Assembly (NCBI GenBank): GCA_003153855.1
Contig: PMBM01000163.1
Coordinates: forward strand, 1-28,765
DNA from: Propionibacteriaceae bacterium
GTDB lineage: Bacteria > Actinomycetota > Actinomycetes > Propionibacteriales > Propionibacteriaceae
Length of the DNA: 28,765 nucleotides
Reading direction: 5' to 3'
Shown here in pieces: positions 2,967 through 14,481 of this stretch. Position numbers and translations under genes: made by a program. The notes beneath the pieces are model-generated. The model searched no databases and was not told the DNA's origin. It saw only the letters and a program-made list of their open reading frames with translations. Position 1 is the first letter of the stretch. Each line of letters starts with the position of its first letter.

Positions 2967-3779
2967 ATGGAGCTGTCGATCACGTTCAGCGACGAGGAGC
3001 TGGCTTCGCTCGCAGGCATACTCTCCGAGTCCGTTCCGCGGATCGGCCCGTCCACGCTTGACGGGCTGAGCACCGCACGCCGCGCAGAACGCCTCAGTGC
3101 GGCGGAGGCGTCGTTGCGGTCCCGAGGCATCGTCGTGACCACCCCGACCGGCGCGACAGAGGTGGCGGTACCGGTCGCACGGCTCGTCGAGATCCTCAGC
3201 CGGCCCGTGATGACCGTGACCATCCATCGGGGTGTGCCGGGCGGCGGCTGGGACAGACACGCCATGGAGGTGGCCGTCGTACCGGAGGCGTCCGTGCTCC
3301 GCGTCGTCGAGGGCGGGCTGCATCGGCTGACGCCCTTCGCCACCTCCGAGGTGCTGCGGCGTGTCGCCGCGTTGACCTGCGCCACGTCGCAGGTTCCTGA
3401 GGGAGACGCACCGGTGCAGGTGGGGGTACGGGCGCTGGCGCGGGCGCTCAGAGCCACAGGCGAGGCCGTCGTGCGTCAGGAGCTGCGCGATGCGGCAGGC
3501 GAGACCCCACCCGCGACTCTCGACGCGCTGGCGGCGGCGATCTGCGCCCACCGCGCCGCCATCGGGTTCCAGAGCACGCCGCGCGGCGGGCGATCCTTCG
3601 GCCTGCAGCTGGCCTGGGTCGCCGGTCCGGGCGGAGCCTGGGAGCTACCCGTGGCCGCAACCCCGTTGGCGGGCGAGGCCGGGTCGGCTCCTCGTGGCGA
3701 CTCCCTGGTGACCCTCGACCCGGTCTGCGGCGACACGCTGCTCCGGGCGTTGGCGACAGTCGGAGATGCAGCGTCGTGA
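2967..3779 (+). CDS. EspG-like ESX/type VII secretion-associated protein
   Basis: 270-aa soluble protein without signal peptide or membrane helix. Length and pattern resemble the EspG family of type VII secretion chaperones. The N-terminus is helical (FSDEELASLAGILSE). A segment of the form 'aaEasLrsRGIV' (about 45-55) follows, then a beta-rich core (RPVMTVTIHRGVPGGGW, about 86-102; LRVVEGGLHRLTPF) and a late strand with WELPVAATPL. EspG proteins bind PE/PPE substrates in mycobacteria, but no PE/PPE gene is here, so the client could be one of the WXG100-like proteins downstream. GGAGGG lies about 8 nt before the ATG, and a possible -10 box TACGCT is at 2916-2921. It is first in the plus-strand set and overlaps the next gene by 4 nt. 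Family assignment rests on pattern only. Confidence 0.6.
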   Translation: MELSITFSDEELASLAGILSESVPRIGPSTLDGLSTARRAERLSAAEASLRSRGIVVTTPTGATEVAVPVARLVEILSRPVMTVTIHRGVPGGGWDRHAMEVAVVPEASVLRVVEGGLHRLTPFATSEVLRRVAALTCATSQVPEGDAPVQVGVRALARALRATGEAVVRQELRDAAGETPPATLDALAAAICAHRAAIGFQSTPRGGRSFGLQLAWVAGPGGAWELPVAATPLAGEAGSAPRGDSLVTLDPVCGDTLLRALATVGDAAS

Positions 3780-3964
3780 TCCCGCCCGTCGAGCCAGGTG
3801 ACGACTCGTCCGCGCTGTCCGAGCGGGACGGGCTCGCGTCGCACGACGAGGCGCAGCTGCTCCGTGACCTGGGTGCCCTGCTCGACGAGCTCCGGGCCGC
3901 TCCTGGCCCTCTCCCGCTCGACTACGACGACATCTGGCGGCGCATCGACCGCGACATCGGCTGA
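3776..3964 (+). CDS. Small acidic protein of unknown function in the secretion locus
   Basis: 62-aa acidic protein beginning with GTG at 3776, which overlaps the TGA of the EspG-like gene (GTGA), so translation is probably coupled. The N-terminal third is rich in Asp, Ser and Glu; a short helix (EAQLLRDLGALLDELRAA, about 26-43) and the end LDYDDIWRRIDRDIG follow. It has no signal peptide, cysteine pair or recognised domain. Its position between an EspG-like gene and WXG100 genes suggests an accessory or partner protein for secretion, but this is only context. The 4-nt overlap and Arg/Asp-rich helical end make it more likely real than chance. Confidence 0.6.
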   Translation: MIPPVEPGDDSSALSERDGLASHDEAQLLRDLGALLDELRAAPGPLPLDYDDIWRRIDRDIG

Positions 3965-3994
3965 GGAGCGTCACGCTGGGGGCCATGCGCCCGT

Positions 3995-4000
3995 TATAGA
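3995..4000 (+). promoter_or_regulatory. Candidate -10 box for the WXG100 genes
   Basis: TATAGA stands out in very GC-rich DNA in the 79-bp gap before the first WXG100 gene. A start near 4007 would give a leader of about 37 nt with GAAAGG before the ATG. No clear -35 is visible. It suggests that the abundant small substrates have a promoter of their own. Confidence 0.4.
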
Positions 4001-4043
4001 GGGTGACACCTCCGTACAGGCCACAAACGAAAGGGCACCCACG

Positions 4044-4307
4044 ATGCCGCTCATCGGTGGAGAACTCGACCAGCTGTCCGCGCTCAAGGCGACCTTCGAC
4101 CGCGAGGGCAACCTCGTGGCGGACGTCCTCACCACGATCCGCAACCAGCTCGGCAACACCTACTGGGAGGGACCGGCCGCCGGGCGCTTCCGCGAGGCCT
4201 GGCAGAGCGACTTCGAACCCATGCTGCAGCGGCTGCAGAACCAGCTCGCCGATGCCGGCAAGGAGGTCTCCAGCAGGCGCGAGGGGCTGATCAGGGCCGG
4301 CTCGTAG
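4044..4307 (+). CDS. WXG100-family protein (EsxA/EsxB-like)
   Basis: 87-aa protein with the size and pattern of ESAT-6-like WXG100 proteins: two amphipathic helices joined by a turn with W41-E-G43 in NTYWEGPAAGRF. Helix 1 is about 8-37 and helix 2 about 46-82 (FREAWQSDFEPMLQRLQNQL). Such proteins form helical-hairpin dimers and are exported by FtsK-type (EccC/EssC) ATPases; the ATPase is encoded on the other strand at 6739-11160. No clear C-terminal YxxxD/E export signal is present, so that signal may lie on the partner, as in mycobacterial pairs. A weak GAAAGG lies before the ATG. The next gene, 24 bp downstream, is the probable partner. Confidence 0.88.
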   Translation: MPLIGGELDQLSALKATFDREGNLVADVLTTIRNQLGNTYWEGPAAGRFREAWQSDFEPMLQRLQNQLADAGKEVSSRREGLIRAGS

Positions 4308-4331
4308 CCGTACGGGAACAGGAGCTCCGCC

Positions 4332-4592
4332 ATGGCTGACGCCGCAAGCCTCGAAGCGGCCGCGACCGCGCTGCTGACGCGCGCCGACGACCTGTACTAC
4401 GTGGGCGGCCAGCTCGTCGACCGCAGCCTGCGCATGACGTGGGACTGCGCGAAGGGCCAGCGCTATCGCGAGGCGATGCTCGCCCGTGAGGCGGAGTGCT
4501 ACCGGATCGCCGCGGAGCTCCGCGACCTCGGTGTCGCGCTCAAGGTTCGTGCCCAAGCCGCTCAGGCGCCTGTGCCCGTACCGGGGGCGTGA
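4332..4592 (+). CDS. Divergent WXG100-like partner protein
   Basis: 86-aa helical protein directly after the WXG100 gene, with AGGAG 7 nt before the ATG. It has the WXG100 length and two predicted helices (about 6-32 and 42-76), but the turn reads MTW37-D-C39 instead of W-x-G. A second cysteine sits in AECYRIAAE (about residue 56), so disulfide or metal chemistry is possible. The tail is short and Pro/Ala-rich (QAPVPVPGA). It most likely pairs with the upstream protein, as EsxA-EsxB type partners are encoded side by side. Its stop lies 1 nt before the next ATG (TGACATG), so translation is coupled to the large protein. The role is inferred from size and position. Confidence 0.7.
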   Translation: MADAASLEAAATALLTRADDLYYVGGQLVDRSLRMTWDCAKGQRYREAMLAREAECYRIAAELRDLGVALKVRAQAAQAPVPVPGA

Positions 4593-4593
4593 C

Positions 4594-6249
4594 ATGCCGA
4601 CGAAGATCCGCATCGACACGGACTCGATGCGTACAGCGGCCCAGTACCTCGAGGGCGCCCTCGACCAGCTGGGCGACATCCGGATGGCACTCGTACAGGT
4701 CGGCGCCGTCGTCGATGAGACGCCCGATCACGCGACGCGTCGCCAGCAGATCCTCGCCGAGATCGAGCAGGTCGGGGCGACGGTGACACAGGACCACGAC
4801 ATCCTGGTCCAGGAGATCCTCGCCCTGGAGGCGTCGGAAGGCCCGCCGCCCGCGACGGCCGCGGTCATCCCGACGACCACGAGTACGGGGATCATCATCC
4901 TCAACCTCGCGCCACCGCTCATGTTCGGCCACCATCCTCAGCAGACGCCCGAGCCGTGGGACCAGTCGTGGGTCAACCCGGACGGCTCGGTGCCTGCGGG
5001 ACAGACCACGGGAGGCTCCGGTTCGGCGGCAGGAAGCTCCGCGTCCGCGAGCTTCGGCGCCAAGTGGGACGACCGGGACGAGACCGGCGACGACAACCTC
5101 GGGGCGTCCGGTGGAGTCTCGGGCGGGGTGTCGGGCCATGCCCATGCCGAGGCAGGGGCCGGTGACGGGGCCTTCAACGCGTCGGCAGGTGTCGATGTCG
5201 GGGCCAGCGCCCACGCGGAGGGCGAGGTTCACATCGGTCAGCTCAGCGCCTCGGGTCAGACCGATGCCCAGGTCGGAGCCGGCGCGTCGGCGGGGGTCTC
5301 GGGCTCGGTCGGTACCGGCGGGGTGTCGGTGGCGGCGGGAGCGGAGGCCCACGTGGGCGGTTCCGCGAGCTCGAGCGGCACGGTGGGCGTCGGCGATGCG
5401 TCCGTCACTGGCGAGGGACATGCGCAGGCCGGTGCCGAAGCGCACGCGCAGGCGGCGGCCCATGCCGGGCCCGACGGCGTCGATGCCGGGTACTCGGTGG
5501 GCGCGGGAGCCGGAGCCTCAGCGGGAGTGTCAGGCACTGCCGGGACCGGGGACTCCTCGGTATCGGGCGGTGTCGGGGTCCGCGCGGGGGTGAGCGTCGG
5601 CGTCTCGGGCGACGCCCATCTGGGCACCGACGGCGTGGGCTTCAAGGTCGACATCGGCGCGTCGCTCGGGCTGGGCCTCGGGCTCGACCTCGATGTCGAC
5701 CTCAGCTGGAGCGACCTGAACCCGCTCAAGGCCGTCGAGAACGCCATCGACTCGGTGGGGGACGCGCTGAACACGGTCAAGGACGTCATGGAGACGGCCG
5801 CCACCGTCGCCAGCGGGGCGGTGCAGGCCGTGGAAGCCGTGGGGTCAGCGGCCGCCGATGCCGTTGCCGCGGTCGCGCAGTACACAGCGGCCCCGGTGGC
5901 CGGGGTCGTCGCTGACGCGGTCAACGCGCTCTTCGGCGTCCCCCAGCCCGGGGCGACGAACCTGGGGAGCATCGCGCATTCGGTCGCGGACAGCCTCGCG
6001 AACGCCGCAGCGCCGGGCCCAGCGGTCGGTGCCGGCCACCTGCGGAATGCGATGGGTCAGCCGAACGTGAGCACCGGGATGGATCCCGGACAGTTCCAGC
6101 CTGGGACGCCCGTCGGGACCGACCTCGGTACAGGCTCGGCTGGGGCCATGGCGGCGCCTGCGACACCCGACGGAGGGCTGGCGGGTCCCCCGGCCACCGG
6201 AGGCGACGCCCCGATGTACCACCCTGATCTCCCGACCCCCGACAAGTAG
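4594..6249 (+). CDS. Large Gly/Ala/Ser-rich protein with WXG-like N-terminal helices; candidate type VII substrate
   Basis: 551-aa protein of unknown function. Residues 5-80 form a helical hairpin like WXG100/LXG modules (MRTAAQYLEGALDQLGDIRM, then TRRQQILAEIEQVGATV). A hydrophobic linker (about 88-112) and a low-complexity stretch follow. Residues about 165-370 are Gly, Ala, Ser, Val and His rich with alternating small/hydrophobic pattern and a loose internal repeat: AGVSGSVGTGGVSV near 233 and AGVSGTAGTGDSSV near 310. Residues about 375-445 form a long Ala/Val-rich helix without charge-free membrane spans, and the last 80 are Gly/Pro-rich. It has no signal peptide, so export through the local FtsK ATPase fits. 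No enzyme or toxin domain was recognised. ATG at 4594 was chosen over the earlier open frame because it follows the previous stop by 1 nt. Confidence 0.8.
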   Translation: MPTKIRIDTDSMRTAAQYLEGALDQLGDIRMALVQVGAVVDETPDHATRRQQILAEIEQVGATVTQDHDILVQEILALEASEGPPPATAAVIPTTTSTGIIILNLAPPLMFGHHPQQTPEPWDQSWVNPDGSVPAGQTTGGSGSAAGSSASASFGAKWDDRDETGDDNLGASGGVSGGVSGHAHAEAGAGDGAFNASAGVDVGASAHAEGEVHIGQLSASGQTDAQVGAGASAGVSGSVGTGGVSVAAGAEAHVGGSASSSGTVGVGDASVTGEGHAQAGAEAHAQAAAHAGPDGVDAGYSVGAGAGASAGVSGTAGTGDSSVSGGVGVRAGVSVGVSGDAHLGTDGVGFKVDIGASLGLGLGLDLDVDLSWSDLNPLKAVENAIDSVGDALNTVKDVMETAATVASGAVQAVEAVGSAAADAVAAVAQYTAAPVAGVVADAVNALFGVPQPGATNLGSIAHSVADSLANAAAPGPAVGAGHLRNAMGQPNVSTGMDPGQFQPGTPVGTDLGTGSAGAMAAPATPDGGLAGPPATGGDAPMYHPDLPTPDK

Positions 6250-6264
6250 CCCGAAGGACGCGCC

Positions 6265-6738
6265 ATGGACCTCATCTACCCGAGCACCGACTTCCCGCCG
6301 CCCCCGGCGATCAGGCTCAGCGTCCCGGACGGCTGGGTGCGGGTGGACACGGCCGAGGCTCTGATGGCGGCCGCCGACCCAACCTCGCCCCCGGGATTCG
6401 CCTCGAACCTCATCGTCACCGTCGGCCGGATCGTGGGCGACGACGACCTCGACGCGGTCGTCCGGCGCCAGCAGCAGGCCGCTGGAGGCGGTGCCCAGGT
6501 GGAGCGGCAGGACCGCGAGCCGATCGGGGGCCACGACGCCGTGTGGTCGGCGACCTCGTACGCGTCGACTGCCGACCGGCCCGTTGCCTTCTTCCAGGCA
6601 CAGGCGACGTTGCTCGTACAGCGCCGCGAGCGCGTCGCCGACGTCGTGACCCTCATCGGGTCGTGCGCGGCGGCTGCGTCCGCGCACTACGCGCCGATCT
6701 TCCGCGACGCGTTCCTGAGCCTCGTCGTCGACGAGTGA
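6265..6738 (+). CDS. LpqN/DcrB-like protein of the secretion locus
   Basis: 157-aa protein with the pattern of the LpqN/LpqT (PsbP/Mog1-like alpha-beta) group: an early 'IRLSVPDGWVRVD' strand-turn, 'FASNLIVTVGRI', and a late 'QATLLVQRRERVADVVTLIGSC' pair followed by a helix. Unlike true LpqN it has no signal peptide or lipobox, so it is probably cytosolic, a form often met near actinobacterial type VII genes. It lies 15 bp after the Gly/Ala-rich gene with GAAGGA before the ATG and ends the plus-strand set. Its TGA (6736-6738) touches the stop of the ATPase gene on the other strand with no gap. Its exact role in secretion is unknown. Confidence 0.65.
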   Translation: MDLIYPSTDFPPPPAIRLSVPDGWVRVDTAEALMAAADPTSPPGFASNLIVTVGRIVGDDDLDAVVRRQQQAAGGGAQVERQDREPIGGHDAVWSATSYASTADRPVAFFQAQATLLVQRRERVADVVTLIGSCAAAASAHYAPIFRDAFLSLVVDE

Positions 6739-9700
6739 TCAGTCGGGCCAGACGACCTGTACGTAGTCGACGGGACCTCGGCTGACGAGGTAGCCGCGGC
6801 CGGGCGGGAACCTCCGGGACGCCTTCTTGGGCAGCCGCACTCCGTACAGGTCGCCGTCGGTGTCGACGTTCGGGTTGAGGATGATGCCGTTGCGCACCTT
6901 GCGCAGCCCGGTGATCCAGCCGCCGAACGCGCGGTGAGCCGTATGCGTCTGGACGGCGGCCAGGACGGTCAGGTCGACGTCCCGTGCGCGCCGCAGCAGC
7001 GTCGCCAACGCGTTGCCGCCGGGGGTGTCGGCGAGCTCCTCGCCGTCGTCGACCACCACCAGCCATGGGCACGGGTTCGACTCGTGGTCGCGGAGCCGGT
7101 CCTCGAGGCGTCGGGCCAGGTCGTCGGCGGCGTCGGCGCCCGAGCCCACTTCGCGCCACCAGGGCGCGGCGAGAAGCGGAGTACGGCGCGGTGCGGCGAG
7201 GTACGCCTCGAGACCCGGCGTCGACTCGACGAGGCCGCGGGCAAGGTTCAGCAGCGTCATGCTCCGGCCGCACCGGTCGGTGCCGAAGACCCCGAACACG
7301 GGCGACTCGTCGAGGTCGAGCGCGACCGGGCTGTACGTGTCGCCGGACACGCCCAGCGGTACCGACGCGCGCTGTACCGCCCCGAACGCCACTGTGGTGC
7401 GGTCGATCCGGTCGGGCAGGGGGTAGACACCCTGCGGCCGACAGGGCGTCGCCCCCTGGAGGCGCGCGGCTGAGGCCGTACCGAGCTCGGCAAGGCGCTT
7501 CGCCTGTCCCGCGCCCGATGCGTCCTCGCCCAGCACGGCCACGTGCACCTCGACGCCGTTGAGGAAACCCCGCCCCGGAGGGAGCGTGGAGGAGGCCAAC
7601 GCGGTCGGCAGCCCGAGGGAGGCGTACTCGTCGCCGTCTGCCATCCGCAGCACGATCCGCTCGCTGATGCCGCTGGACAGCGTGGTGGGGACGGCGCTGC
7701 GCCGGTCCGCGGTGATCACGAACGCCAGGCCGGTAGCGCGTCCCTGGCCGACGAGCCGCTCGAAACGCTCCAGCAGCTCGCCGCGGTCGATGTTCATGTA
7801 CGTCTGGCGGAACGCTCCCAGCCCGTCCAGCAGTACGACGACGTACGGGAGCGCGCCGCCGCCGGCGCGGTACTCGGCCAGCGAGCCGGCGTTGGCCGTG
7901 GCTAGCAGGGCTGCGCGCTCGGCGACGATCTGTTCCAGCAGCCCGAACAGCCTGTCGATGCGTTCGGGTTCGTCGATGCTGACCACGCCTCCGACGATCG
8001 GCAGGGCGGTGAGCGGGCCGAGCCCGTGCCCGGTGGCGTCGAGCCCGTACAGGTGGACGTCGTCCGGGCCGCACCGGGCCGACAGTGCGGCGGCGATGCT
8101 CCGCAGGAGCTGCGTCTTGCCAGTGCCGCTGGTCCCGTACACGAGCAGGTGCCCTGTGACCCCCGGGTCGTACCAGCAGACGTCCTGCGCCTGGCGTTCC
8201 GGGAGGTCGACATGGCCGATGGGGATCGCTGTCGTTGAGGCATCCGAAGGCGCCGGGAGCGCCAGCAGCGCGGTCAGGTCGATCAGCGGCGGCAGCGGGT
8301 CGAGCCACGGCTTGGGCTGGTCCGCGACCCCGCTCACGGTGTGGGCCTCGCGGATGGCGGCGACGAGGCGCTGGAGGTCGGTCGGTCGGTCGTCCTGGAC
8401 ATCGCGGTGGCCGCCCCCTCGCGTGGCGTCCCGAAGCCCGGACCCGACGAGGAACGGCTCGACCGTCGTGGGCTGCCGGGTGCTGCCTCCCTGTTGCGAG
8501 CGGGCGTTGGCGTACGCGGACTGGACCAGCGTGACGTCGCTGTGCCCGACACGTACGAACGCGCGGCCCGGCAGGCTCTTGGGCAGCCGGGCGGCATCGG
8601 GCCGGTCGAGGACGTCGTTGCTGTCCTGCTCGTCGGCCATCCGGAGGGCGATGCGGAGGTTGGTGTTGGCCCGGATGTTCTCGTCGACGACACCGGAGGG
8701 TCGCTGGGTGGCGAGCATCAGGTGGACGCCGAGCGACCGGCCGCGCTGTGCGATGTCGACGACGCCCGCGACGAACTCGGGCACCTCCTTCTTGAGGAAG
8801 GCAAACTCGTCGAACACGATGAACAGGTTCGCGAGGCCGACATCCGGACGCCGTTGCTCGAGCTCAGGAAGGTCCTTGCAGCCGTTCTCCCGCAGGATCC
8901 GCTCGCGGCGCCTCAGCTCCGCGTTCAGCGAGATGAGGGCGCGTTTGGCGAGGTGGGCGTCGAGGTCGGTGAAGAAGCCGACCGTGTGGGGGAGCTGGAC
9001 GCAGTCGGCGAATGCAGCGCCGCCCTTGTAGTCGACGAGGACGAACGTGAGCGTCGATGCCGGGTACGTGGCGGCGAGCGAGCCGATCAGGCTCTGCAGC
9101 AGCTCGCTCTTCCCCGACCCGGTGGTGCCCGCTGCGAGACCGTGCGGGCCGTCGCGCCGGAGGTCGATGCTGACGGGTCCGGCGGACCCTGTACCGATCG
9201 GGGCCCCCAGCGTGCCGGTACCGGCGTACGTCGCCCAGCGCCGCTGGATCTGGCGAGCCTCCGGTTCGGGCATCTCGAGCAGGTCGAGGAGCAGGACGCG
9301 TCGCGGTACCTCGCCGGTCGCGGTGGCCGCGGTGGCATCGCTGAGCGGGGCCAACCGGCGGGCAACCTCGCGGGCCAGGTCGGGAGAGAGCCCGTCGATG
9401 ACGAGGTTCGAGATCTGGTCACCGCTCGCGGTGAGGGTGACCGACCCGGCATCCCCGCGGTCGTCGACCCTCACGATCGCGCGGCACTCTCCCGGCAGCC
9501 GCTCGGCGACGGTGTCCGCCACGATGCACGAGACGCCGAACCGCGGGCCGTCGGCCAGGAGCCGCGACAGTGCCGGCTGGGGGACCGCGGTGGGCCCCGG
9601 CACGACGACGAGGACCCACGGGTACGGACGCTCGTCGCCCACCCCGCGCTCGGCGCGCAGGCGCCGGGTGGTGACAAGGTCGTCGACGACCTGGAACAGG

Positions 9701-11160
9701 GCCCGTACGTCCTCGGCCTCGGAGGCGACCGTACGTGCTCCGGGGACCCCGACGAGCAGGGTCTCCGTGTGAGGCAGCCAGCGCAGCCACGCCCACTCGC
9801 TCTGGGGCGAGGACTCGGTCGCCGGCAGCAGCCCGACGATGGCCAGGTCGCGGGGACTGTGCAGGATCGCTGCCTGGACGACGAGCCAGCTCACGAGCGC
9901 GGTACGCACGCGCGCGGATCCCGCAATGCCCAGGACGCCGGTGGTGGTGAGGCCGACGTCGACCGGTACGGCCGGATCGAGGGCATGCGACGCGGCGAGC
10001 GCCTTGGCGCGCTCCTGGTCGGCGGTCTCCGGGGCGGTGAGGCCCTTCGTCGTGTCCGAGACGTTCGTGGTGACGGAGAGTCTGCTCGGCAGGTCCGCGG
10101 CCGCGATCCGTACCGTGAGGAAGTCCGCTTCGTCGTAGCGACGTTCCCAGAGCCGCGGATCTCGCGAGCGCACCCACTCCACGAGCTCCGCCACGCTCGG
10201 TGCGGCTGAACGGCGCTCGGCCAGCAGGGCGCGATGGGTGGCGTCGACGGTCCGCTCGAGCTGGTCCATCTCGGCGACGTAGGCAGCGCGCCGGGCGGCG
10301 TACTCCTTGCGCCCGCTGCGGCGGTCCTCCCAGCTCGACGCAGCCATCACGACCGGCCCCATCAGGGCGAACAGCAGCATCATGGGGCCCATGAAGTAAG
10401 CCATCACAGCGCCCATGACGACCGGGACGAGCGCGGTGGCCATGGGGATCTTCCGCCGTGGCGGCTGGACTGGGGCGGTCGGCACGGTGACGACGGGCGA
10501 GGTCGTGGTACGGGCCACGCGGGGCGACCGCGAGTACGACTCACGGCCGTCGACCCAGGTCACGTTGGCGTGGCCGTGTGCGGCGCCCGCGACGGCCACG
10601 ATCGACAGCTGGGTCGTGCCCAGCTCCAACACCTGTCCGGGCTGCACCTCTGTCGGCGCACTGAGCCGCCGGCCGTCGAGGAAGGTGCCGTTCGCCGACC
10701 CCGCGTCGGTGGCGACGACCGCGTGCGAGCCGACGCCGAGGTGGACGTGGCGGCGCGACGTCTGCGGGTCGCCCACCACGATGTCGGCGGTGTCGTCGCG
10801 ACCGACGATGTAGGCCGACCCAGCGCGCAGCGGGTACCGGGCTCCGGCGCTCGGGCCACCGACCACCGTGAGCTCGAAGGCCGGCAGGGCGGCGGTGGCG
10901 TCACGCACGGACTCCTGCGGCGGCCGTCCAGCAGGGACCAGCTCGAGACGGTCGCCGTGGACCAGCCGGGCGTCGGAGACGGTACGAGCCGGGTCGAGGC
11001 GCGACGCCGTACGCGCCACGTAGGCGTCGACGGGCCCGGTGGCGCCGACGGTGTCCTTGAGCGCGTCGATCAGCTCGGCGGCCGGTGCGGCCGCGTCGAT
11101 GTCGACCCGCAGGTCCACGGGGGGCCGGCCGGTACGGGACACGACGAGGAGAAGCTCCAT
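6739..11160 (-). CDS. EccC/EssC-type FtsK/SpoIIIE secretion ATPase with ubiquitin-like and FHA domains
   Basis: About 1473-aa motor of a type VII secretion system. Order of parts: ubiquitin-like fold, about 1-78; FHA domain, about 95-190, with GR (120-121), SRRH (135-138) and the NGTFLDG motif (157-163); two membrane helices, about 239-277; then three FtsK-type ATPase domains. ATPase 1 has Walker A GTTGSGKS (about 678-685) and Walker B VFDE (about 781-784); ATPase 2 has GTSGTGKT (about 1008-1015) with VLLDG instead of DE; ATPase 3 has a degenerate GTDRCGRS (about 1292-1299) with Lys replaced by Arg. The N-terminal FHA resembles Firmicute EssC more than mycobacterial EccC. GAGGAGG lies 7 nt before the ATG, and the start follows the sigma-factor stop by 1 nt. 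It should export the WXG100-like proteins encoded opposite. Confidence 0.93.
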   Translation of the reverse strand: MELLLVVSRTGRPPVDLRVDIDAAAPAAELIDALKDTVGATGPVDAYVARTASRLDPARTVSDARLVHGDRLELVPAGRPPQESVRDATAALPAFELTVVGGPSAGARYPLRAGSAYIVGRDDTADIVVGDPQTSRRHVHLGVGSHAVVATDAGSANGTFLDGRRLSAPTEVQPGQVLELGTTQLSIVAVAGAAHGHANVTWVDGRESYSRSPRVARTTTSPVVTVPTAPVQPPRRKIPMATALVPVVMGAVMAYFMGPMMLLFALMGPVVMAASSWEDRRSGRKEYAARRAAYVAEMDQLERTVDATHRALLAERRSAAPSVAELVEWVRSRDPRLWERRYDEADFLTVRIAAADLPSRLSVTTNVSDTTKGLTAPETADQERAKALAASHALDPAVPVDVGLTTTGVLGIAGSARVRTALVSWLVVQAAILHSPRDLAIVGLLPATESSPQSEWAWLRWLPHTETLLVGVPGARTVASEAEDVRALFQVVDDLVTTRRLRAERGVGDERPYPWVLVVVPGPTAVPQPALSRLLADGPRFGVSCIVADTVAERLPGECRAIVRVDDRGDAGSVTLTASGDQISNLVIDGLSPDLAREVARRLAPLSDATAATATGEVPRRVLLLDLLEMPEPEARQIQRRWATYAGTGTLGAPIGTGSAGPVSIDLRRDGPHGLAAGTTGSGKSELLQSLIGSLAATYPASTLTFVLVDYKGGAAFADCVQLPHTVGFFTDLDAHLAKRALISLNAELRRRERILRENGCKDLPELEQRRPDVGLANLFIVFDEFAFLKKEVPEFVAGVVDIAQRGRSLGVHLMLATQRPSGVVDENIRANTNLRIALRMADEQDSNDVLDRPDAARLPKSLPGRAFVRVGHSDVTLVQSAYANARSQQGGSTRQPTTVEPFLVGSGLRDATRGGGHRDVQDDRPTDLQRLVAAIREAHTVSGVADQPKPWLDPLPPLIDLTALLALPAPSDASTTAIPIGHVDLPERQAQDVCWYDPGVTGHLLVYGTSGTGKTQLLRSIAAALSARCGPDDVHLYGLDATGHGLGPLTALPIVGGVVSIDEPERIDRLFGLLEQIVAERAALLATANAGSLAEYRAGGGALPYVVVLLDGLGAFRQTYMNIDRGELLERFERLVGQGRATGLAFVITADRRSAVPTTLSSGISERIVLRMADGDEYASLGLPTALASSTLPPGRGFLNGVEVHVAVLGEDASGAGQAKRLAELGTASAARLQGATPCRPQGVYPLPDRIDRTTVAFGAVQRASVPLGVSGDTYSPVALDLDESPVFGVFGTDRCGRSMTLLNLARGLVESTPGLEAYLAAPRRTPLLAAPWWREVGSGADAADDLARRLEDRLRDHESNPCPWLVVVDDGEELADTPGGNALATLLRRARDVDLTVLAAVQTHTAHRAFGGWITGLRKVRNGIILNPNVDTDGDLYGVRLPKKASRRFPPGRGYLVSRGPVDYVQVVWPD

Positions 11161-11161
11161 G

Positions 11162-11731
11162 TCACGACCTCCTCGAGGGTTGGGTGCCGCTCGTCGCGAG
11201 CGCGGCGCGGAGAGACTGAAGGCCTCGGTGGGCTCGAGAACGTACGGAGTCGGCGGAGATCCCGAGGACGTGTGCCGTCTCGGTCACGTCGAGGCCGTCC
11301 GCGTACCGCAGGATGACCACGACCCGCTGGCTGGGGGTGAGCGACGCAAGGGGTTGGCTGATCCGCCGCTCGGCGGTCAGGCGGTCGACGACCCCGTCGT
11401 CGAAGCATGGGATTGCCGGCACCTCGACGGTGGCCGTTGCGAGCTCTCGTCGAGAAGGGTGCCTGGCCCGTTCCGCCAGCTGTCTGGACGCGATGCGGAA
11501 CAGCCACGCCCTGATCGACGTCCCACGCCATTCGAAGCGTGGGAGCGCGAGCCACGCCCGGATGAACGTCTCGGCCACGAGGTCGTCGACGTCGTCATGA
11601 GGCGAGCGGCGGGCGAGGAAGGCCGCGACGCCCGGTGCGTACAGACCGTAGAGCTGGCGGAACGACTCCTTGTCGCCGCCGGCCGCGCGTTCCACCAGCC
11701 GTGCTTCGTCGGTGAGGGTGAAGTCGGACAT
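11162..11731 (-). CDS. ECF-type RNA polymerase sigma factor
   Basis: 189-aa sigma-70 family protein with only regions 2 and 4. Region 2 is about 9-85, with the core-binding motif DVDDLVAETFIRAW (47-60) and 'IRAWLFRIASRQLAERAR'. Region 4 is about 125-176, with the helix-turn-helix VTETAHVLGISADSVRSRAHRG. No anti-sigma gene is adjacent; instead it sits 13 bp after a transmembrane Ser/Thr kinase and 1 bp before the secretion ATPase, so the three are surely one operon. Kinase-linked ECF factors are known, and phosphorylation can replace anti-sigma control in some. The acidic DD residues of region 2.2 are intact here, unlike in the phospho-activated EcfP type. Its targets may include the WXG100 genes; this is inference. 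The ATG at 11731 was chosen at the family's usual N-terminus. Confidence 0.9.
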   Translation of the reverse strand: MSDFTLTDEARLVERAAGGDKESFRQLYGLYAPGVAAFLARRSPHDDVDDLVAETFIRAWLALPRFEWRGTSIRAWLFRIASRQLAERARHPSRRELATATVEVPAIPCFDDGVVDRLTAERRISQPLASLTPSQRVVVILRYADGLDVTETAHVLGISADSVRSRAHRGLQSLRAALATSGTQPSRRS

Positions 11732-11744
11732 CGTCGGAAGGCGC

Positions 11745-13499
11745 TCAGGCGGCGACGCAGGACTTGGGACTCGGCGCGCTCGACATCCCGTTCTCGCCCA
11801 CGGCGATGATCTCGTAGCAGAGCGCCACCCCAGCTGGGGGACTGTTGTCGACGAGGCAGTACGGGTACCCCCCCGGACAGTTCGTGACGTTTGTAACGGG
11901 GAGCTCGTTGTAGGGGAACGATCCGTACGCGCCACCGTTGGCAGCGCGGATCGCCTTGTACGACGCCACGGTCGCTGTCGGCGACTTGTTCCACACCAGC
12001 TGGACTTTCGCTCCCGAACGCGTCGCGACCAGGTCGGGCGGCGGTGACGGCGCGATCACGATGATCTTCGTGATTCTCGTGTAGATCGAGATGAGCGGCT
12101 TCGACACCGACGCCTGGGCGGACGAGGGCGCCGCGGTCGGAGTGGGTGTCGACGTGGGGGTCGGCGTCGCGGTCGGAGTGGGTGTGGGAGTGGGCGTAGG
12201 CGTCGCCGAGGTCGATGTCGCCGACGGTGTCGGGGTGGAGGACGTGGACGGAGTGGCCACGACGCTTGCCCCACCGCCGACCATCGCCATGACCTGCCGC
12301 CACGGGACGACGACCAGGAGCGCGGCCAGCACCACCACAGCACCGACGGCGACCAACGCCCGTACGTGCCGTTTGCGCGGTTTCGCGGCGGGGGGTGGTT
12401 CCGAGGGCGTCTCGACCTGACGAGACCGCGCCGCGAGCATCGTGGCGTCCCCGCCGGCCGGGCTGGCACCGACGGCATGGAAGACGGGCGGCAGGATCGT
12501 TGCGCCTGCTGCGAACCCCGACGCAGCCGCGGGAGAAGCCCCGACCACGTTCGGGATGGTCGCGAGGGATGACGCGATGACGGTCGCCGGCGCGGTGGAT
12601 CCGGTGACGATCCTCTCCGAGACCGGGCCCATGAGCACCATGTCGGTGACGGGCTCGCCGGCAGCGCGCTGCACGTCCTGAAGGCGTCGACCGAAGTCCG
12701 CGAGAGTCTGAGGCCGGTCAGCCGGGTCCTTGGCCATCGCCGCCTGGATCGCCTCGCTCAGCGCTGGTGGGGCGATCGCGGGATCGAGCGCCGGTGGCTG
12801 CTCGTGCAGGACGCGGTCGACGAAGCCCGCGATCCCGGTCTGCTCGGGGTCGGAGAACGCGGATTCGCCGCGCAGCAGCTGGTACAGGGTGGAGCCCAGG
12901 TTGTACGCGTCGGTCCTCATGTCGGCAGGCTTGCCGAGCAGCACCTCGGGGGCTGCGTGCGTCGGGGTGTACGCGGTCGTCACCGTGGCCGCGCCGCGTG
13001 CCGTGGAGATGCCGAAGTCGGCCAGCGCGGGCTCGCCGAACGCCGTGATCAGGATGTTCTCCGGCTTCACGTCCCGGTGGAGCACACCGAGCTGGTGGGC
13101 CGCATCGAGAGCGCCGGCGATCTTGATGCCGATGCGGGTCACCTCGGCAGCCGGGATCGGACCGGTCGAGCGCACCCGGTCCGCCAGCGAGCCGTGCTCG
13201 CAGTACGTCATCGCGAGGAACGGATGGCCGTCGTCGAGGAACCCCGAGTCGAAGACCGTCACGATGTTGGGGTGGCCTGTCAGGCGACCCATGAGCGTGC
13301 ACTCCCGCTCGAACCGACGACGTCCCGCCTCGTCGTCGATCCCCGCCAGGAGGATCTTGACCGCGACCATCCTGTCGTAGGCGATCTGGCGCGCGCGCCA
13401 GACTGTGCTGAATCCCCCCCGCCCGATCAGCTCGAACGAGTCGTAACCTGGGACTCGCGGCCGCGAGAGCCGGCCGGAGTCCTCATCGACACCGTCCAT
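11745..13499 (-). CDS. Transmembrane Ser/Thr protein kinase with extracellular FN3-like domain
   Basis: 584-aa Hanks-type kinase. Catalytic features: glycine loop GRGGFSTVW (26-34), K48 in VAVKI, HRDVKPEN (141-148) and DFG (161-163). A 100-residue cytosolic linker contains repeated Thr-hydrophobic sites (T285, T306, T314, T334, T353). One membrane helix spans about 379-400. A Thr/Pro repeat stalk (about 416-460) is followed by a fibronectin type III-like domain (about 484-580) with four cysteines (C541, C548, C561, C581) that may form disulfides outside the cell. Usual actinobacterial PknB kinases carry PASTA repeats instead. First gene of the operon kinase-sigma-EccC. A TAGTGT -10-like box (13514-13509) lies 9 nt before the ATG, so the leader is nearly absent. 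It probably senses an external ligand and controls sigma factor or ATPase activity. Confidence 0.92.
   Translation of the reverse strand: MDGVDEDSGRLSRPRVPGYDSFELIGRGGFSTVWRARQIAYDRMVAVKILLAGIDDEAGRRRFERECTLMGRLTGHPNIVTVFDSGFLDDGHPFLAMTYCEHGSLADRVRSTGPIPAAEVTRIGIKIAGALDAAHQLGVLHRDVKPENILITAFGEPALADFGISTARGAATVTTAYTPTHAAPEVLLGKPADMRTDAYNLGSTLYQLLRGESAFSDPEQTGIAGFVDRVLHEQPPALDPAIAPPALSEAIQAAMAKDPADRPQTLADFGRRLQDVQRAAGEPVTDMVLMGPVSERIVTGSTAPATVIASSLATIPNVVGASPAAASGFAAGATILPPVFHAVGASPAGGDATMLAARSRQVETPSEPPPAAKPRKRHVRALVAVGAVVVLAALLVVVPWRQVMAMVGGGASVVATPSTSSTPTPSATSTSATPTPTPTPTPTATPTPTSTPTPTAAPSSAQASVSKPLISIYTRITKIIVIAPSPPPDLVATRSGAKVQLVWNKSPTATVASYKAIRAANGGAYGSFPYNELPVTNVTNCPGGYPYCLVDNSPPAGVALCYEIIAVGENGMSSAPSPKSCVAA
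12120..12245. repeat. Low-complexity repeat encoding the Thr/Pro stalk of the kinase
   Basis: Imperfect 6-bp periodic DNA (plus strand GGNGTG/GGCGTC units) encodes the Pro-Thr repeats of the kinase stalk. Runs GGG at 12180-12182, 12186-12188 and 12192-12194 with near neighbours could form a G-quadruplex on the plus (template) strand. Slippage by one unit would change stalk length without shifting the frame. Confidence 0.6.
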
Positions 13500-13545
13500 G
13501 GTGATTTCACACTAATGCCGCGTGAGACGCCCCACTGGGCTTGGG

Positions 13546-13559
13546 GTGAGATTGCTCAC
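13546..13559. promoter_or_regulatory. Inverted repeat upstream of the kinase operon
   Basis: GTGAG-ATTG-CTCAC is a perfect 5-bp inverted repeat about 47 bp upstream of the kinase start. A shorter GTGA-TT-TCAC (13501-13510) lies beside the start codon, overlapping the predicted -10 box. These could be regulator sites, but they are short and chance is possible. Confidence 0.3.
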
Positions 13560-13581
13560 GCGAGCCGTAGCCGCACCCCGG

Positions 13582-13709
13582 TCCGGGAGAGAACCTAGGT
13601 GGCTCGGGGAGAGAACGTGGCCGGCTTGGAGGCGAACGTGGCTGGTCCGGGGAGGGAACCGGTCCCGTCAGGAGAGCACCTGTACAGGTCCGGAGCATCC
13701 CTGTACTGG
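13582..13709. repeat. Six imperfect 21/22-bp tandem repeats upstream of the kinase operon
   Basis: Six head-to-tail units occupy 13582-13602, 13603-13624, 13625-13645, 13646-13667, 13668-13688 and 13689-13709, with lengths 21, 22, 21, 22, 21 and 21. Units 1-4 share a core like GGGAGAGAACCT or GGGAGAGAACGT followed by GG; units 5 and 6 are more divergent and share CCTGTAC. Short palindromes recur at the same place in the unit (ACCTAGGT, ACCGGT, ACCTGTACAGGT). The period is two helical turns, so all copies face the same side of the DNA. The array fills the gap between the map stop and the kinase operon promoter. A multi-copy operator is the most likely role; it is not a CRISPR array because there are no spacers. 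Confidence 0.7.
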
Positions 13710-13710
13710 T

Positions 13711-14481
13711 CTACTCCGGGAGTGTGAGGATCTCGGGGCCGGACGCGGTGAGGGCGATGGTGTGCTCGGTGTGGGCGGTGCGGCAGCCCGTGGCGCTGCG
13801 GAGGGTCCAGCCGTCGTCGTCGACCTTGAGGCGGTCCGTATCGGCCATGACCCAGGGCTCGATGGCGAGGAGCAGGCCCGGCTTCAGCGGGAACCCGCGG
13901 CCAGGCATCCCGTTGTTCGAGATGTGCGGGTCCTGGTGCATCGTGCTCCCGACGCCGTGGCCGCCGAACTCGGTGCTGACCTTGTAGCCGGCTCCCGTCA
14001 GCACCTGTCCGATGGCGTACGAGATGTCACCGGTCTTCGACCCTGTTCCCGCAGCCGTGATCCCGGCGGCGAGCGCATCGCGCGTCGCGTCGATCATGCG
14101 CTGGTCCGCCGGGTCGACGGTGTCGCCGACGACGAAGCTGATCGCCGCATCGGCCACCCAGCCGTCGACGCCGACCGCGAAGTCGAGGGTGAGGAGGTCG
14201 CCGTCGCGCAGCACGTAGTCGTACGGCAACCCGTGCAGTACGGCGTCGTTGACCGACGTACAGATCACCTTCCCGAACGGCCCCCGGCCGAACGACGGCG
14301 CGTAGTCGACGTAGCAGGAGACGGCCCCACGCCGGGCGATCAGCTCGACCGTCCAGTCGTTGATCTCCAGCAGGTTCGTCCCTGGCTCGGCACGACGCTG
14401 GAGCTCCGCCAGCGTCGATCCCACGAAGGCGCCTGCCGGCCTTGCCGCGTCGACCTGACGCGGCGACAGCACCTCGATCAT
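13711..14481 (-). CDS. map: Type I methionine aminopeptidase
   Basis: 256-aa cytosolic metalloprotease that removes the initiator methionine from new proteins. The five metal ligands of the family are present: D100, D111, H175 (GGHGVGS), E208 (AIEPW) and E239 (HTEHT), with the substrate-binding H83 in VLHGLP. The length fits the short bacterial form without an N-terminal extension. GGAGGAA lies about 5 nt before the ATG at 14481. It is transcribed toward the repeat array and the kinase operon, and probably on its own transcript. In many actinobacteria map lies next to secY and adk; that is not so here, so this may be one of two or more paralogues. Confidence 0.96.
   Translation of the reverse strand: MIEVLSPRQVDAARPAGAFVGSTLAELQRRAEPGTNLLEINDWTVELIARRGAVSCYVDYAPSFGRGPFGKVICTSVNDAVLHGLPYDYVLRDGDLLTLDFAVGVDGWVADAAISFVVGDTVDPADQRMIDATRDALAAGITAAGTGSKTGDISYAIGQVLTGAGYKVSTEFGGHGVGSTMHQDPHISNNGMPGRGFPLKPGLLLAIEPWVMADTDRLKVDDDGWTLRSATGCRTAHTEHTIALTASGPEILTLPE

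What the first reader, a model, noticed from the sequence alone, without database searches (positions are those of the whole stretch)
2967..13499. Self-contained type VII-like secretion cassette with its own kinase and sigma factor but no EccB/D/E or MycP
Seen: six plus-strand genes (EspG-like, acidic 62-aa, two WXG100-size, Gly/Ala-rich 551-aa, LpqN-like) converge on a kinase-ECF sigma-EccC/EssC operon. The flanking genes (MocR/permease; map) are unrelated, so the locus has clear borders. Known: mycobacterial ESX systems need EccB, EccC, EccD, EccE and MycP. None of the partners is in this window. Inference: this may be a reduced, signal-controlled secretion system in which one large ATPase carries several of the usual parts.
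Basis: partly seen in the sequence, partly recalled or inferred. Interest (0 to 1): 0.75.

Follow-up and report, generated by a model that had tools for sequence, protein, structure and literature searches.

The report
Kinase-coupled type VII secretion variant
This stretch of bacterial DNA, probably from an actinobacterium, encodes a compact protein-export machine that appears to have its own signalling kinase and chaperone; it is a variant of the type VII secretion systems and offers a way to test whether such machines are switched on by phosphorylation.

Summary
The locus is real. Nine genes (2967-13499) form a self-contained type VII secretion (T7SS) variant. Its ATPase is EssC-like, not an ESX EccC. 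No EccB, EccD, EccE or MycP match lies on the window's contig; the genome has them at a separate ESX locus (C38, C114). The two do not co-vary: 8 of 14 genomes with this ATPase type lack EccB. EssB is found in 0 of 14; EsaA passes the cut-off in 0 of 14.

Related ATPases occur in 142 of 394 genomes of the class, and kinase-bearing T7SS variants (T7SSc-j) were described in 2024 (PMC11217815). This locus matches none of them as described in the parts I read. It combines (i) a ubiquitin-like domain fused to the ATPase, (ii) an FHA domain with all four phosphothreonine-site residues, (iii) a transmembrane Ser/Thr kinase with intact catalytic motifs, (iv) an EspG chaperone, (v) an ECF sigma factor.

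Most likely the kinase phosphorylates threonines that dock on the ATPase FHA domain and license export; that step is inferred. The ubiquitin-like protein reported missing from T7SSd may be fused likewise (untested). Verdict: new variant of a known kind.

The parts
2967..3779 (+). EspG-type chaperone (270 aa, P0001)
3776..3964 (+). 62-aa acidic small protein, overlaps the EspG gene end; role unknown
   Evidence: ORF and codon usage only
4044..4307 (+). WXG100 protein (87 aa), likely core secreted partner
   Evidence: TIGR03930 E 1e-5, below cut-off; W-E-G motif; BLAST family shared with small genes of L036, L038, L047
4332..4592 (+). 86-aa protein of WXG100 size, possible co-secretion partner (Lap-like); inference from size and position
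   Evidence: no family match; codon usage positive
4594..6249 (+). 551-aa candidate substrate: about 95-residue leader, then Gly/Ala/Ser/Val-rich tail
   Evidence: translation, composition; no Pfam match
6265..6738 (+). 157-aa LpqN-like protein
   Evidence: PF10738 E 0.043; BLAST-linked L084 relative 42.7 bits, cut-off 22.4
6739..11160 (-). EssC-like (TsxC) ATPase, 1473 aa: ubiquitin-like domain 1-76, FHA 93-191, two TM segments by hydropathy, P-loop-like sites at 678, 1009 and 1293 (the last of GR type)
   Evidence: TIGR03928 E 4e-192, below its cut-off
10588..10884 (-). FHA domain of the ATPase (residues 93-191) with R121, S135, H138, N157
10933..11160 (-). ubiquitin-like (YukD/TsxB) domain fused to the ATPase N-terminus (residues 1-76)
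   Evidence: profile comparison with Bacillota YukD-type proteins: Prob 81.5, E 1.1e-5, score 33.0; 100 column shuffles reach at most 10.2; beta-grasp order in model
11162..11731 (-). ECF sigma factor (189 aa)
   Evidence: Sigma70_r2 E 3.9e-13, r4_2 E 1.3e-11, scanned in its longer frame
11745..13499 (-). transmembrane Ser/Thr kinase (584 aa): intact catalytic motifs, linker with conserved threonines, TM about 381-399, extracellular part with conserved W503, C561, C581
   Evidence: Pkinase E 2.4e-41
13578..13659 (.). 22-bp direct repeat (3.8 copies) upstream of the kinase gene; possible regulatory site
   Evidence: Tandem Repeats Finder score 66

Best explanation
The locus is a self-contained type VII secretion variant of Actinomycetota built round an EssC-like ATPase (TsxC). 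Shown by sequence and model: the ATPase carries a fused ubiquitin-like domain, an FHA domain with a complete set of phosphothreonine-site residues, and FtsK-type motor domains; a single-pass Ser/Thr kinase with intact catalytic motifs, an ECF sigma factor, a WXG100 protein and an EspG chaperone are encoded with it. Inferred: the 551-aa Gly/Ala-rich protein, with the 86-aa and 87-aa partners, is the cargo; EspG (and perhaps the LpqN-like protein) keeps it soluble and brings it to the ATPase. The kinase senses the envelope through its extracellular part and phosphorylates threonines, most likely its own juxtamembrane A-T-[VIM]-[LI] sites. These dock on the ATPase FHA domain, assembling or licensing the pore, while the ECF sigma adjusts expression. 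The kinase would thus occupy the place that the EssB pseudokinase holds in Bacillota, but in a phosphorylation-dependent form.
For: ATPase identity. Independence from ESX: EccB absent in 8 of 14 EssC-type genomes. EssB in 0 of 14, B. subtilis control positive. FHA tetrad: invariant in 18 of 18 window-type ATPases. Kinase catalytic residues invariant in 15 of 15 aligned kinases, chosen from FHA-intact loci and P0009 homologues. Kinase beside ATPase (within 1500 bp, either side): 24 of 61 with intact FHA against 7 of 75 without, Fisher 3.4e-5, 17 loci dropped for short flanks. Linker threonines 306, 334 and 353 conserved in 13, 14 and 15 of 15 kinases. Motif T[VIM][VILMQHY][RKG] in 14 of 24 linkers of kinases beside FHA-intact ATPases (expected 0.9), 0 of 6 usable of 7 beside non-intact FHA. 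Linkage repeats in other contigs, inferred from equal contig lengths. G572 repeats kinase, ATPase and a WXG100-like gene. Precedent: B. subtilis EssC FHA binds the EssB pseudokinase without phosphorylation, its pThr residues not being conserved (PMC9600267, passages).
Against: The FHA-kinase association is not significant after correction for shared ancestry: pairs that differ in FHA state, 7, about 2.7 concordant and 0.1 discordant, p about 0.25; pairs that differ in kinase, 11, about 1.4 concordant and 0 discordant, p 1. 37 of 61 FHA-intact loci have no kinase within 1500 bp, and 7 loci with one lack the tetrad. The linker motif was noticed after looking, and other kinases of unknown linkage also carry it above chance (13 of 97, expected 2.8). 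In its strict R/K form the window-type kinases show no excess (1 of 9, expected 0.9). No sequence evidence links kinase and EssB (hhalign Prob 1.1%). No membrane partner beyond kinase and ATPase is identified. No Y-x-x-x-D/E signal in the 86- and 87-aa proteins. Nothing was measured.
Confidence: 0.6

Rival explanations
1. It is simply an Actinomycetota T7SSd (Garrett et al. 2024): WXG100, FHA-bearing ATPase with conserved pThr site, and kinase.
For: Same three core components, and the pThr site is conserved (PMC11217815).
Against: T7SSd is described with TsdH (single TM) and TsdI (very large envelope protein); neither is in this locus by size and hydropathy. EspG and ECF sigma are not listed as T7SSd components there. 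The window ATPase groups with L048 and the clade of L057, L106 and others, apart from the L049/L104 clade whose loci hold a large one-TM protein and a kinase. Olsenella TsdC itself was not available to me.
Confidence: 0.2
2. The cassette is an accessory ATPase/substrate module that borrows EccB/EccD/EccE/MycP from the genome's separate ESX locus.
For: The genome has EccC, a MycP-like and an EccD-like gene on C38 and EccB and EccE on C114. EspG is an ESX-type chaperone.
Against: No co-variation: 8 of 14 EssC-type genomes (those 8 are 97-100% complete) have no EccB match. The ATPase carries its own Ubl and FHA; the own-genome EccC has no N-terminal FHA in my alignment.
Confidence: 0.08
3. The kinase acts on the ECF sigma factor (transcriptional control by sigma phosphorylation, as recalled for EcfP/PknT) rather than on the ATPase.
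For: Kinase and ECF sigma are adjacent (13-bp gap) and none of the nine proteins matches an anti-sigma family in the Pfam or NCBIfam listings shown.
Against: Region 2 keeps an acidic D-x-D-D stretch (sequence), whereas phosphorylation-dependent ECFs are recalled to lack it. In the 9 other kinase-ATPase loci whose maps I printed (L041, L057, L060, L065, L084, L085, L106, L108, L112) no gene of the window's sigma family lies between kinase and ATPase. Both routes could coexist.
Confidence: 0.12

Closest known systems
T7SSd / T7SSe (TsxA, TsxC, TsxD; Garrett, Higginson and Palmer 2024, PMC11217815; parts 1-4 of 7 and Discussion read)
   Same: EssC-type ATPase with FHA whose pThr site is conserved, membrane Ser/Thr kinase, WXG100; the authors already suggest phospho-control
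   Different: here no TsdI/TsdH in the locus; EspG, ECF sigma, LpqN-like protein; ubiquitin-like domain fused to the ATPase, whereas they report none for T7SSd and a free one for T7SSe
T7SSb (Ess/Yuk; PMC9600267 and PMC3694306, passages read)
   Same: EssC-like ATPase with N-terminal FHA; kinase-fold single-pass partner; ubiquitin-like component
   Different: T7SSb has pseudokinase EssB, FHA sites without pThr residues, EsaA, EssA and free YukD; EssB, cut-off EsaA and free YukD were not found here; EssA was not tested
T7SSa / ESX
   Same: EspG chaperone, two WXG100-size proteins, Gly/Ala-rich cargo candidate
   Different: no EccB, EccD, EccE or MycP in the locus; ATPase has FHA and falls outside EccC
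PFNA cluster of bifidobacteria (PMC8430577, passages read)
   Same: transmembrane kinase, FN3, FHA, AAA-ATPase, DUF58 and transglutaminase genes, a helper set partly seen beside some EssC-like loci
   Different: no EssC or WXG100 is mentioned in that main text (0 occurrences of FtsK, WXG, secretion)

Membership tests
T7SSa (ESX) | EccB, EccD, EccE and MycP with the ATPase | tested here: not met
   own-genome matches lie on other contigs, none on C137; genome 77.8% complete; the MycP match on C38 is itself below cut-off
T7SSa (ESX) | EspG chaperone | tested here: met
T7SSb | EssB/YukC | tested here: not met
   PF10140: 0 of 14 EssC-type genomes, B. subtilis control rings
T7SSb | EsaA | tested here: not met
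   TIGR03929: 0 of 14 over cut-off; 10 of 14 have weaker matches, the listed places not at the EssC-type locus; three control genomes ring weakly too
T7SSb | EssA | not tested
   no search made
T7SSb | free YukD/EsaB protein | tested here: not met
   the only own-genome PF08817 hit is inside a 546-aa EccD-like frame on C38
T7SSd | ATPase with FHA and conserved pThr site | tested here: met
T7SSd | membrane Ser/Thr kinase (TsdD) | tested here: met
T7SSd | WXG100 protein (TsdA) | tested here: met
   TIGR03930 E 1e-5 but below the curated cut-off; Pfam E 8.8e-4, also below cut-off
T7SSd | TsdI and TsdH in the cluster | tested here: not met
   by size and hydropathy only, within 2967-13499; rest of genome not tested
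EspG family (PF14011) | profile match and EspG fold | tested here: met
YukD/EsaB ubiquitin-like | beta-grasp homology of ATPase residues 1-76 | tested here: met
   hhalign E 1.1e-5 with shuffle control, model; Pfam YukD alone is weak: 4 of 41 members at E up to 0.1, the window at E 0.0017, 19.5 bits, cut-off 27
phosphothreonine-binding FHA | binds phosphothreonine | not testable with these tools
   the four site residues are present; binding needs an assay

The most novel reading that the evidence does not exclude
Actinobacteria hold a large, mostly undescribed branch of type VII secretion in which the ubiquitin-like component is fused to the ATPase and an active kinase docks on that ATPase through phosphothreonine. 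The Bacillota EssB-EssC pair would be the version of this switch that lost phosphorylation (dead kinase, dead FHA site), and T7SSd's 'missing' ubiquitin-like protein would be hidden inside its ATPase.
Probability: 0.3. Interest if true: 0.8.

Novelty: new variant of a known kind. Interest (0 to 1): 0.58.

Why it matters
That T7SSb pairs a kinase-fold protein (EssB) with FHA domains lacking the phosphothreonine residues is remarked on in print (PMC3694306, PMC9600267; passages). This locus has the same kind of pair with both active sites intact, so the question becomes directly testable, also in cultured actinobacteria that hold the kinase-ATPase pair. It also joins an ESX-type EspG chaperone to an EssC-type motor, which separates chaperone choice from membrane-complex type, and it suggests where the ubiquitin-like component reported missing from T7SSd may be.

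Tried and rejected
Reduced ESX: rejected, the ATPase is EssC-like and EccB does not co-vary. EssB homology of the kinase by sequence: not supported (Prob 1.1%). Shared ECF promoter words between the 2831-2966 and 13500-13711 regions: 1 shared gapped word against 0.84 expected. FHA-kinase association as evolutionary proof: too few independent pairs. EspG in G572: a 239-aa gene with a similar start is only a weak hint (hhalign Prob 4.1, E 0.01; no Pfam match). Close relatives by peptide pattern of the single protein: none confirmed. VIA-align rows for the ATPase N-terminus span mainly the FHA part (90-194), so the fold of residues 1-76 rests on the model and the profile comparison. tRNA and Rfam scans of the window: nothing. 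That this exact combination is not in print rests on searches (listings) in an open-access library; a fusion of YukD to an FtsK ATPase was not described in the passages of PMC1779556 that I read.
Full report
OBSERVATION. The window encodes, on the plus strand, genes of 270, 62, 87, 86, 551 and 157 aa (2967-6738), which end against a minus-strand ATPase (6739-11160), ECF sigma (11162-11731) and kinase (11745-13499). Codon usage is positive for all nine; the ORF 4003-4290 is an overlapping artefact (-32.9) and the WXG100 gene is 4044-4307.

NOT AN ESX. The own genome (77.8% complete) has EccC, MycP-like and EccD-like genes on C38 and EccB and EccE on C114. Among 57 genomes (own and relatives), the EssC-type ATPase (E below 1e-130, my threshold) is in 14 and EccB in 29; both in 6, EssC-type only in 8, EccB only in 23, neither in 20. 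EssB is in 0 of the 14 with a working control, and EsaA passes the cut-off in 0 of 14, with weaker matches in 10. EssA was not tested. A tree of 95 ATPase cores sets the own-genome EccC apart and puts the window on a long branch (0.67) inside a 26-row group (SH-aLRT 96) with L048 and a clade of 24 loci, several of which bear a kinase beside the ATPase.

BREADTH. Of 394 genomes of the class, 142 have a match at E up to 1e-200 to the window-type profile; beside G000 only G572 stands out as window-type (1350 bits, next 1069). Its locus has a divergent kinase, the ATPase and a WXG100-like gene. A protein search gives ATPases up to 90% identical; the 17 that I aligned with the window (A4) are 51-90% identical and include Allorhizocola (Micromonosporaceae) and Phytohabitans. 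Equal contig lengths imply, without proof, that kinase and ATPase share a contig in four cases (198563, 68508, 24040, 89308), EspG and ATPase in one (271539), EspG and kinase in one (118321).

UBIQUITIN-LIKE DOMAIN IN THE ATPASE. A profile of 26 ATPase N-termini aligns to 10 Bacillota-type YukD proteins (Prob 81.5, E 1.1e-5, score 33.0), while 100 column-shuffled controls reach at most 10.2 and a reversed one 10.7. The model of residues 1-215 (mean pLDDT 86.5) shows strands and a helix in beta-grasp order in 2-76, then an FHA. Pfam YukD alone is weak (4 of 41 members at E up to 0.1). Garrett et al. 2024 were surprised to find no ubiquitin-like protein in T7SSd (PMC11217815), and Iyer et al. 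2006 describe the actinobacterial YukD as always fused to a 12-TM domain (PMC1779556, passages). Fusion to the ATPase is therefore a plausible answer for T7SSd. I could not test Olsenella TsdC; L049 and L104, whose gene order resembles T7SSd, were part of the N-terminal profile but were not tested alone.

MECHANISM. I propose that envelope signals act on the extracellular part of the kinase, that phosphorylated linker threonines dock on the ATPase FHA domain, and that this assembles or opens the motor; EspG delivers the Gly/Ala-rich cargo with its WXG100-size partners. The B. subtilis pair works without phosphorylation (PMC9600267), and kinase-FHA control of several T7SS variants was already suggested (PMC11217815). 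What I add is the genomic case in this branch and a named docking site to test.

SCORING. The general idea of kinase-bearing T7SS variants is published, so this is a new variant, not a new kind. The Ubl-ATPase fusion, the EspG/EssC combination and the FHA-kinase pairing make an open question testable; hence 0.58.

Noticed in passing
window 13578-13659: 22-bp direct repeat, 3.8 copies (TRF score 66), upstream of the kinase gene; possible operator
   Followed up: partly
G000:C38 (L050) and G000:C114 (L051): An ESX system of the same genome lies on two contigs: EccC, MycP-like and EccD-like on C38; EccB, EccE and a WXG100 on C114
   Followed up: partly
L069, L073, L080, L087, L089, L036, L038: EssC-like genes beside runs of genes that look, by size and TM order, like part or all of a Tad pilus cluster (recalled resemblance, not domain-tested)
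   Followed up: no
L037, L040, L041, L044, L048: EssC-like genes beside TgpA-type transglutaminase (tested in L041), DUF58 and FHA (tested in L044) and MoxR-like genes (name recalled; BLAST family only), the helper set of the bifidobacterial PFNA cluster
   Followed up: partly
L043, L045, L046: Three related loci with an ECF sigma (tested in L043), a 355-361 aa TM protein and an EssC with a degenerate FHA, opposite a WXG100-size gene and near a very large protein of over 1900 aa, cut by the stretch end
   Followed up: partly
L084:9001-22443: Luteimicrobium album has one EssC-like gene in two frames and a second copy downstream, with two units of a roughly 400-aa gene plus an LpqN-family gene between them
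   Followed up: no
L112:1080-5556: A Bifidobacteriaceae locus with two transmembrane kinases upstream of an EssC-like gene
   Followed up: no
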